Shown here piece after piece: positions 9,324 to 12,979 of a DNA stretch of 20,162 nucleotides. Position 1 is the first letter of the stretch. Each line of letters starts with the position of its first letter. This stretch comes from a virus: positions 1 to 20,162 of the IMG/VR virus record IMGVR_UViG_3300040856_002369; one strand, given 5' to 3'. The position numbers and the translations under genes were made by a program. The notes under the pieces are model-generated. The model was given only the letters and a program-made list of their open reading frames with translations, was not told the DNA's origin and did not search any database.

Positions 9324-9339
9324 TGTTCCACGTGGAACA
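9324..9339. promoter_or_regulatory. parS: parS-type palindrome, copy 1
   Basis: TGTTCCACGTGGAACA is a perfect 16-bp palindrome (18 bp with flanking A/T) that fits the bacterial chromosomal parS consensus tGTTNCACGTGNAACa bound by ParB. It is located about 190 bp upstream of terL in non-coding DNA. Identity is seen directly; ParB binding is inferred. Confidence 0.8.
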
Positions 9340-9351
9340 TCCGGCACTAAA

Positions 9352-9367
9352 TGTTCCACGTGGAACA
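9352..9367. promoter_or_regulatory. parS: parS-type palindrome, copy 2
   Basis: This is an exact second copy of the 16-bp palindrome, 28 bp from the first (centre to centre), with a shared upstream AAA giving a 19-bp direct repeat. Two exact copies side by side make chance occurrence very unlikely. Confidence 0.8.
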
Positions 9368-9450
9368 CCGTATCTTTTTTTCACAGTACTGTTTGTAAGA
9401 AACATGCACCTTGATGCCGCTGTGGCGGCGGGGGCGGCGGCGCGCGATGC

Positions 9451-9734
9451 GCGGCCCACGGCCAGCGATCCACGGCGCGGGAGACGCAATCGCGGACTGG
9501 GTCCCACGGGTCCCCGGCCACGGTCCACGGCCAACGGGGCGCGGACCCCGGGGAAAGTGTCATGACAAAAGCAACGCGGAAAACGGGCCACGGGGCGCGG
9601 TGCCTGGTCGATCGGCCCGCAGCAAATCCCGGAACGCTGCCGAACTGTGGCCACGGTCCACGGGCCACGGTTCCCGGAACGCTACCCACGGCCCACGGGG
9701 CCCGGTACGTTTGGCAGGGACCACGGCCCGCGGG
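9451..9734. repeat. CCACGG word cluster
   Basis: At least ten CCACGG words occur here, most within GGCCCACGG, GGTCCACGG or GGCCACGG contexts, sometimes in 7-bp steps (for example around 9650-9670). The words GGGGCGCGG and TTCCCGGAAC-like segments alternate with them. The same word, often as CCGTGGNCCGTGG, is scattered elsewhere in the window. Confidence 0.7.
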
Positions 9735-9758
9735 GCAGGGGTGCGATGTTACGGGCAC

Positions 9759-12286: not shown

Positions 12287-12486
12287 CCCGATCGGAGCGC
12301 AAGCCCCTCAAAAAAAATATTTTGCCCCAGAAACCATGCGGGGTTCAGGCCGATGAGAGGCCGTTTTTGCAGCTTCTCGCTCTACGTTTCTCGGTGTCAA
12401 GCCCCCCGAATTCGACAATCCGGCTCTGTCATAGAAGCTTCAAAAGCATTGACTTTCGATTTTCTACGAGTTGAGCAAAGGCCGAT

Positions 12487-12495
12487 TGGTAAAAT
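12487..12495 (+). promoter_or_regulatory. Extended -10 promoter candidate
   Basis: TGGTAAAAT provides TGn plus TAAAAT (five of six consensus bases). No good -35 is seen at 17 bp, so it would rely on the extended -10. Transcription would start about 120 bp before the 98-aa gene and include the boxA. Confidence 0.45.
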
Positions 12496-12525
12496 ACTCC
12501 CATGCAAGCCGCAAGCCGGATGCAT

Positions 12526-12537
12526 TGCTCTTTAACA
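12526..12537 (+). promoter_or_regulatory. rRNA-type boxA antitermination element
   Basis: TGCTCTTTAACA matches the boxA of proteobacterial rRNA leaders over all 12 bases. In RNA it binds NusB/NusE and suppresses termination. It is located in the leader of the 98-aa gene, downstream of the candidate promoter. Confidence 0.6.
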
Positions 12538-12568
12538 GCGCTGGCCTAGCACCGAGACGCGAGTCCGC

Positions 12569-12615
12569 TATCGGATGGCAACCCCCACAAACAACTTTCA
12601 CGTTCACTTTGGGAG
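12569..12615 (+). promoter_or_regulatory. Leader module F (98-aa gene)
   Basis: TATCGGATG (12569-12577, a degenerate form of the nonamer) and CACTTTGGGAG (12605-12615), 7 nt before ATG at 12623. No hairpin is evident between them. This is the plus-strand example of the module. Confidence 0.55.
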
Positions 12616-12622
12616 AACAGCA

Positions 12623-12919
12623 ATGAGAAGAATCAAAAAAGCAACCGCCGCAGAACGCGAGGCTTACTTGGCATCTAACCCTACCTACCCGCTGTATGGC
12701 TGGTACGTGCTAGACGGGCATCGGTGCCCTGTCGAGGACTTGCGGTGCTGGGGAGAGGGAGACCCGCAATACGAGTTTCTAGCTCCAGACCGGTACAACC
12801 TTCAAGGCTACGGCACCCATACGTTGCTGGGCTTTACCTTAAGAGACCTTGAGGAACAGCTTAGTTATGAGTCGCTAGAGCCGTGCGAAAAGGGCTGTCA
12901 ATGCGGTTGGGATCTCTGA
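12623..12919 (+). CDS. 98-aa hypothetical protein, plus strand
   Basis: ATG at 12623 is preceded by CACTTTGGGAG (12605-12615) with a 7-nt spacer, so the upstream in-frame ATG at 12575 is rejected. The protein has a basic helical start (MRRIKKATAAEREAYL), an aromatic middle (PLYGWYVLDGHRC) and a Cys-rich tail (CEKGCQCGWDL). The cysteines could bind metal, but no family is recognised. It is the only plus-strand gene between 9 and 17 kb and has a dedicated control region with a boxA and an extended -10 promoter. It is closed by its own terminator at 12928-12949. Confidence 0.75.
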   Translation: MRRIKKATAAEREAYLASNPTYPLYGWYVLDGHRCPVEDLRCWGEGDPQYEFLAPDRYNLQGYGTHTLLGFTLRDLEEQLSYESLEPCEKGCQCGWDL

Positions 12920-12927
12920 ACCATACA

Positions 12928-12949
12928 CCCCGCTCCGGCGGGGTTTTTT
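12928..12949 (+). terminator. Terminator after the 98-aa gene
   Basis: CCCCGC-TCCG-GCGGGG followed by six T residues, 9 nt after the stop codon. Confidence 0.9.
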
Positions 12950-12957
12950 ATGCCCAC

Positions 12958-12979
12958 AAAAAAGCCGCCCGAAGGCGGC
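12958..12979 (-). terminator. Terminator after the four-gene unit
   Basis: On the minus strand, GCCGCC-TTCG-GGCGGC is followed by six T residues. It faces the plus-strand terminator 9 bp away, insulating convergent units. Confidence 0.9.

What the first reader, a model, noticed from the sequence alone, without database searches (positions are those of the whole stretch)
12487..12622. rRNA-type boxA in a phage leader
Seen: an exact TGCTCTTTAACA in the leader of the plus-strand 98-aa gene, 30 bp after an extended -10 promoter. Known: this is the proteobacterial rRNA boxA that recruits NusB/NusE. Inference: the phage transcript may be antiterminated by host factors or may titrate them. The gene is followed by a strong terminator, so antitermination would extend transcription into antisense of the 14102-12999 unit, a possible regulatory switch.
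Basis: partly seen in the sequence, partly recalled or inferred. Interest (0 to 1): 0.6.

Follow-up and report, generated by a model that had tools for sequence, protein, structure and literature searches.

The report
boxA leader of a swappable phage cassette
A phage carries a small accessory-gene slot whose messenger RNA starts with a conserved folded leader containing the same short signal (boxA) that bacteria use to load Nus transcription factors on ribosomal RNA, and this leader is reused in front of at least four unrelated genes, which suggests a generic control element for phage cargo.

Summary
TGCTCTTTAACA lies at 12526-12537, sense strand, 30 nt after an extended -10, upstream of the 98-aa gene. 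About 0.02 such matches are expected in the window.

It is part of a larger feature. In 32 related metagenomic virus contigs the same leader recurs: 5' hairpin, boxA, near-invariant spacer, second hairpin, SD. Where boxA is visible, 30 of 32 copies match the published gamma-proteobacterial consensus GYTCTTTAANA, varying only at its Y and N positions. The second hairpin shows compensatory changes. No Rfam family matches.

The leader fronts four unrelated small genes, each closed by a terminator, always between the terminase-small-subunit side and a DUF932-like gene. It is absent from close relatives. It is a moron-like cassette with exchangeable cargo.

Best reading: a Nus-factor-binding 5' UTR controlling the cargo gene, probably by boxA-dependent repression as in suhB or a C. 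koseri toxin gene, or by Rho protection. Nus binding is inferred. Two leaders have boxA changes at positions expected to weaken it. New variant of a known kind.

The parts
12487..12495 (+). extended -10 promoter element TGGTAAAAT (relatives: TGTTATAAT, TGCGATAAT, TGAGATAAT)
   Evidence: sequence and alignment of relatives; no good -35 seen; consensus scan does not list it
12502..12525 (+). hairpin 1: AUGCA-ag-CCG-[CAAGC]-CGG-a-UGCAU at the expected 5' end of the RNA; other lineages have different stems around the same loop
   Evidence: U-A to C-G change at one pair; z -2.8 for L009, -1.5 for L012, only -0.8 for the window
12526..12537 (+). boxA TGCTCTTTAACA (consensus GYTCTTTAANA = 12527-12537)
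   Evidence: consensus from PMC5725501
12538..12551 (+). spacer NCGCUGGCCUAKCA, near-invariant in all leaders
12552..12574 (+). hairpin 2: outer stem CCGA/UCGG; inner pairing GAC/GUC with GCGA loop or alternatively GCG/CGC
   Evidence: three outer pairs with compensatory changes, 100% of cells paired; one inner compensatory change; outer stem and GCG/CGC alternative predicted by energy in most rows
12575..12616 (+). conserved AUGGCAAC, then a less conserved stretch that can pair with the Shine-Dalgarno; SD CUUUGGGAGA at 12607-12616
12623..12919 (+). cargo gene of the window, 98 aa, function unknown, no family match
12927..12950 (+). intrinsic terminator that closes the cassette
   Evidence: a terminator follows the cargo gene in the relatives, ACCCCGC..GCGGGGT in most
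12964..12979 (-). facing terminator of the opposite-strand genes
12380..12403 (+). conserved element (form here CTCTACGTTTCTCGGTGTCAAGC) about 110 bp upstream of the promoter, probably near the cassette's left edge

Best explanation
The motif is a boxA inside a conserved, structured 5' untranslated leader (hairpin 1, boxA, spacer, hairpin 2, SD) of a moron-like phage cassette whose protein-coding part is exchangeable. Shown by sequence: promoter, leader, cargo and terminator form one unit; the unit is present or absent at one genomic slot, can be inverted, and carries at least four unrelated genes. Inferred: when RNA polymerase makes the leader, NusB and S10 (with NusA, NusG and SuhB) bind boxA and tether the RNA to the polymerase, with the hairpins displaying boxA or adding contacts. 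For a short single-gene mRNA the best-precedented outcome is Nus-dependent repression of translation of the gene just downstream, as for suhB and a toxin gene of Citrobacter koseri, so that cargo would be held low while free Nus complex is plentiful. Protection of the transcript from Rho is the close alternative outcome.
For: Exact match to the boxA consensus in 30 of 32 leaders, changes limited to its Y and N positions. One search searched with the downstream core only, without asking for boxA, and every true hit long enough to show it has boxA, also core only, added one exception (L158). Leader core 41/44 and boxA 10/11 identical between cassettes whose cargo is saturated at fourfold sites (26% identical). 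Compensatory changes in the hairpin-2 outer stem. Single copy in the 57.8-kb record. Four unrelated cargo families under one leader in one slot; relatives with an empty slot. Cargo-C paralogues elsewhere have an ordinary leader without boxA. A second conserved leader in three related contigs has boxA close before the SD, the suhB arrangement. boxA repression persists with up to 100 nt between boxA and SD (PMC5725501); here the gap is about 70 nt.
Against: No binding or expression data; host unknown, so its NusB/boxA pair cannot be checked. L158 (GTTTTTTAACA, C4T) carries a change of the kind that inactivates boxA in E. coli, and L122 (GATCCTTAACA, at a contig end) departs at two positions. The rest of the leader up to the SD is about as conserved as boxA, so exchange of the leader by recombination may explain part of the conservation. 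Inner pairing of hairpin 2 is ambiguous and the window core does not fold better than shuffles. Direction of the effect (repression or protection) is not determined by sequence.
Confidence: 0.5

Rival explanations
1. rRNA-type antitermination: the Nus complex on boxA makes RNA polymerase resistant to Rho and pausing, so that the long untranslated leader and the cargo gene are fully transcribed despite host silencing of foreign genes.
For: Order hairpin-boxA-structured element directly after the promoter is that of rrn leaders (boxB-boxA-boxC, PMC10250234); about 85 nt of untranslated RNA lies between boxA and the ATG.
Against: The transcript is only about 420 nt, monocistronic and closed by a strong terminator; E. 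coli work cited in PMC5725501 finds rRNA itself intrinsically Rho-resistant; no boxC was seen in the leader.
Confidence: 0.25
2. The leader works through another RNA-binding partner (phage or host protein, or SD masking), and the boxA-like stretch is a coincidental part of that structure.
For: Spacer and hairpin 2 are as conserved as boxA; the SD can pair with upstream sequence in the four leader types folded; boxA is altered in L158 and L122.
Against: Variation at exactly the two degenerate consensus positions, and a second unrelated leader with boxA in the same phage group.
Confidence: 0.18
3. One reading: antitermination carries transcription past 12950 and silences the opposite-strand genes by antisense RNA.
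For: In the window the cassette does face the 13000-14102 genes.
Against: In most relatives the same cassette is codirectional with its neighbours, and in the window a facing terminator follows.
Confidence: 0.03
4. Decoy: an abundant leader RNA titrates NusB/S10 and lowers host rRNA synthesis.
For: Extended -10 promoter and boxA close to the predicted 5' end.
Against: Single copy per genome and always attached to a coding gene with an SD.
Confidence: 0.04

Closest known systems
suhB 5' UTR boxA and the C. koseri CKO_00699 toxin-gene boxA (PMC5725501)
   Same: boxA matching GYTCTTTAANA in the 5' UTR of a protein-coding gene, one of them a small accessory (toxin) gene
   Different: here boxA is about 70 nt from the SD and lies between two conserved hairpins; cargo varies; on a phage
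rrn leader boxB-boxA-boxC
   Same: hairpin then boxA shortly after a promoter, identical 12-mer
   Different: no rRNA downstream, no boxC seen; a different, covarying hairpin follows
lambdoid nut sites (boxA-boxB) with N protein
   Same: phage leader RNA with boxA followed by a hairpin, possibly with a GNRA loop
   Different: no N gene or other nut-like copy recognised; one copy, serving one small gene with a terminator
HK022 put RNA
   Same: two stem-loops at the start of a phage transcript
   Different: put is not described with a boxA and acts on whole early operons; no sequence or structural match shown
phage morons
   Same: own promoter and terminator, inserted between conserved genes, variable and dispensable
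   Different: a shared structured boxA leader in front of unrelated cargo

Membership tests
boxA (NusB/S10 site) | match to GYTCTTTAANA on the transcribed strand | tested here: met
   consensus
boxA (NusB/S10 site) | conserved in relatives, changes only at degenerate positions | tested here: met
   30 of 32 leaders; exceptions L158 and L122
boxA (NusB/S10 site) | binds NusB-S10 | not testable with these tools
   needs purified factors or ChIP/CLIP
suhB-type boxA UTR | boxA within 50 bp of the start codon (criterion of the published survey) | tested here: not met
   85 nt lie between boxA and the ATG in the window; met in the second leader of L160, L162 and L163
rrn leader | boxB-boxA-boxC order ahead of rRNA | tested here: not met
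   hairpin precedes boxA, but no boxC (UCUGUGUGGG) seen when reading 12497-12625 and no rRNA downstream
lambda nut site | boxB hairpin plus phage N protein | tested here: inconclusive
   hairpin 2 follows boxA; no N recognised among the cargo products or other proteins scanned
HK022 put RNA | two-stem RNA that alone modifies RNA polymerase | not testable with these tools
   only a general resemblance; no Rfam match
phage moron | autonomous unit with promoter and terminator, inserted and variable among relatives | tested here: met

The most novel reading that the evidence does not exclude
A new family of phage cis-acting RNA (hairpin 1, boxA, spacer, hairpin 2) that captures the host Nus complex without a phage N protein and serves as a standard adapter 5' UTR for exchangeable accessory genes.
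Probability: 0.35. Interest if true: 0.75.

Novelty: new variant of a known kind. Interest (0 to 1): 0.55.

Why it matters
boxA sites outside rRNA and lambdoid nut sites are few. A boxA leader shared by interchangeable phage cargo genes would link Nus-factor availability, which tracks ribosome synthesis, to expression of accessory genes, and gives a compact marker for finding such cargo in metagenomes. The covarying leader is not in Rfam and can be tested with a reporter in E. coli.

Tried and rejected
Chance match: rejected. Known RNA family: none in Rfam, also at a lax threshold. Small peptide encoded in the leader: frames are broken by indels between relatives and changes fall in base pairs rather than third codon positions. 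Other copies of the leader in the same genomes: none in the 57.8-kb record. Leader in cellular genomes: none. boxA in cultured relatives: DSL-LC04 has no YTCTTTAACA; HTVC027P has two matches to that 10-mer that were not examined. Function of the cargo: no Pfam, PHROG, PADLOC or PDB lead worth following; AlphaFold models of two cargo proteins were too poor to search with. Pseudoknot between the hairpin-1 loop CAAGC and GCUG of the spacer: possible but invariant, so unsupported. The fuzzy-regex scan timed out and was replaced by an ungapped scan; a first boxA tally missed rows because of its regular expression and was redone. The pattern GCTCTTTAACANNGCTGG alone gave many contigs without the leader.

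Full report
Observation. TGCTCTTTAACA is at 12526-12537, + strand, the only exact copy, against 0.02 expected for TGYTCTTTAACA. It lies 30 nt after an extended -10 (12487-12495), upstream of a 98-aa gene (12623-12919) with SD GGGAGA and a strong terminator (12927-12950).

What recurs. The 98-aa protein has three close relatives, all preceded by the 12-mer and by about 45 further conserved nucleotides, while upstream DNA differs between the window and L001. Searches of the viral collection with parts of the leader, with a cargo protein and with the neighbouring DUF932-like protein, plus a covariance model, give 32 other contigs with the leader. Where boxA is visible (32 leaders including the window, L025 being cut short), 30 match GYTCTTTAANA: 21 GTTCTTTAACA, 8 GCTCTTTAACA, 1 GCTCTTTAAAA. 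The exceptions are L158 (GTTTTTTAACA) and L122 (GATCCTTAACA, at a contig end). Some searches asked for part of boxA, but searches did not. GYTCTTTAANA is the consensus derived for gamma-proteobacterial boxA from rRNA, suhB and mutational data (PMC5725501); the leaders otherwise vary only at its two free positions.

Structure. Hairpin 1 precedes boxA and has at least three different stems around the loop CAAGC. Hairpin 2 follows a near-invariant spacer. Its outer stem CCGA/UCGG becomes CGGG/CCCG in L058 and CCCA/UGGG in L056, L057 and L158. Three of four outer pairs have changes on both sides and all cells pair; over the whole structure 96% of cells pair against 92% in shuffles, and slid controls fall to 41% or less. 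The inner part is ambiguous: one compensatory change supports GAC/GUC, energy folding prefers GCG/CGC, and the core of the window does not fold better than shuffles. Nothing in Rfam matches.

Constraint. Between cargo-C cassettes with 26% identity at fourfold sites, boxA is 10-11 of 11 and the core up to 42 of 44 identical, while hairpin 1 is 13-14 of 22. The stretch down to the SD is equally conserved in several pairs, so leader exchange by recombination may contribute; the compensatory changes cannot be explained that way.

Cassette. The leader precedes four unrelated small genes (98-aa type; MKNFTAPF type; MDNSLYVV type; MTNIYHS type), each followed by a terminator where the contig reaches that far. 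The slot is always between the terminase-small-subunit/nuclease side and the DUF932-like gene. Relatives such as L099 and L096 have the slot empty. In the window lineage, in L014/L017/L021 and probably in L122 the unit is inverted; elsewhere it is codirectional with its neighbours. The 57.8-kb record has one copy. Cargo-C paralogues at another site use the ordinary leader of this phage group, without boxA.

Second boxA leader. The exact 11-mer GYTCTTTAACA appears in one other place in this phage group: a different leader in G007, G013 and G017, with two hairpins whose loops (GGGGU and ACCCC) are complementary, then GCGCTCTTTAACA, then the SD 9-10 nt later, the suhB arrangement.

Mechanism. Shown: a conserved structured leader with a consensus boxA in front of exchangeable cargo. 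Inferred: NusB-S10 binding and assembly of the Nus complex. For a short 5' UTR the precedents are Nus-dependent translational repression (suhB; lambda N; a C. koseri toxin gene), which in suhB survives insertion of up to 100 nt between boxA and SD (PMC5725501); the phage spacing is about 70 nt. Rho protection is the main alternative.

Limits. The host is unknown: the nearest cultured phages by terminase (61-64%) include a Pelagibacter phage and a phage of an unspecified gamma-proteobacterium; the leader is absent from the cellular genomes searched, and a DUF932 relative was found only in one MAG contig labelled Rhodospirillales. No expression data exist here. L158 and L122 suggest boxA can be lost in some lineages.

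Noticed in passing
window 9324-9339 and 9352-9367; also G001, G002, G003, G004, G007: Perfect 16-bp palindrome TGTTCCACGTGGAACA, close to the ParB-binding parS consensus (from memory), twice near terL here and 1-3 times in most related records, 0 in DSL-LC04 and HTVC027P. ParB was not looked for.
   Followed up: partly
window 10032, 11032, 12278, 14146, 17555; many related loci: Ordinary leaders of this phage group share a promoter motif TATGCGATA (or its reverse), a 5' hairpin with an AAUNNN loop and the SD CTTTGGGAGA, often with a terminator after the gene, as if each gene were its own unit.
   Followed up: partly
L160:3092-3175, L162, L163: Second boxA leader with two hairpins whose loops GGGGU and ACCCC could kiss, nearly identical between phages whose gene has diverged.
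   Followed up: partly
window 12380-12403 and relatives: Conserved CTACGTTTNTAGTGTCAAGC-type element, often followed by a T run, about 110 bp upstream of the cassette promoter.
   Followed up: no
window 9438-9741: GC-rich imperfect repeats of the CCACGG type upstream of the terL gene start.
   Followed up: no
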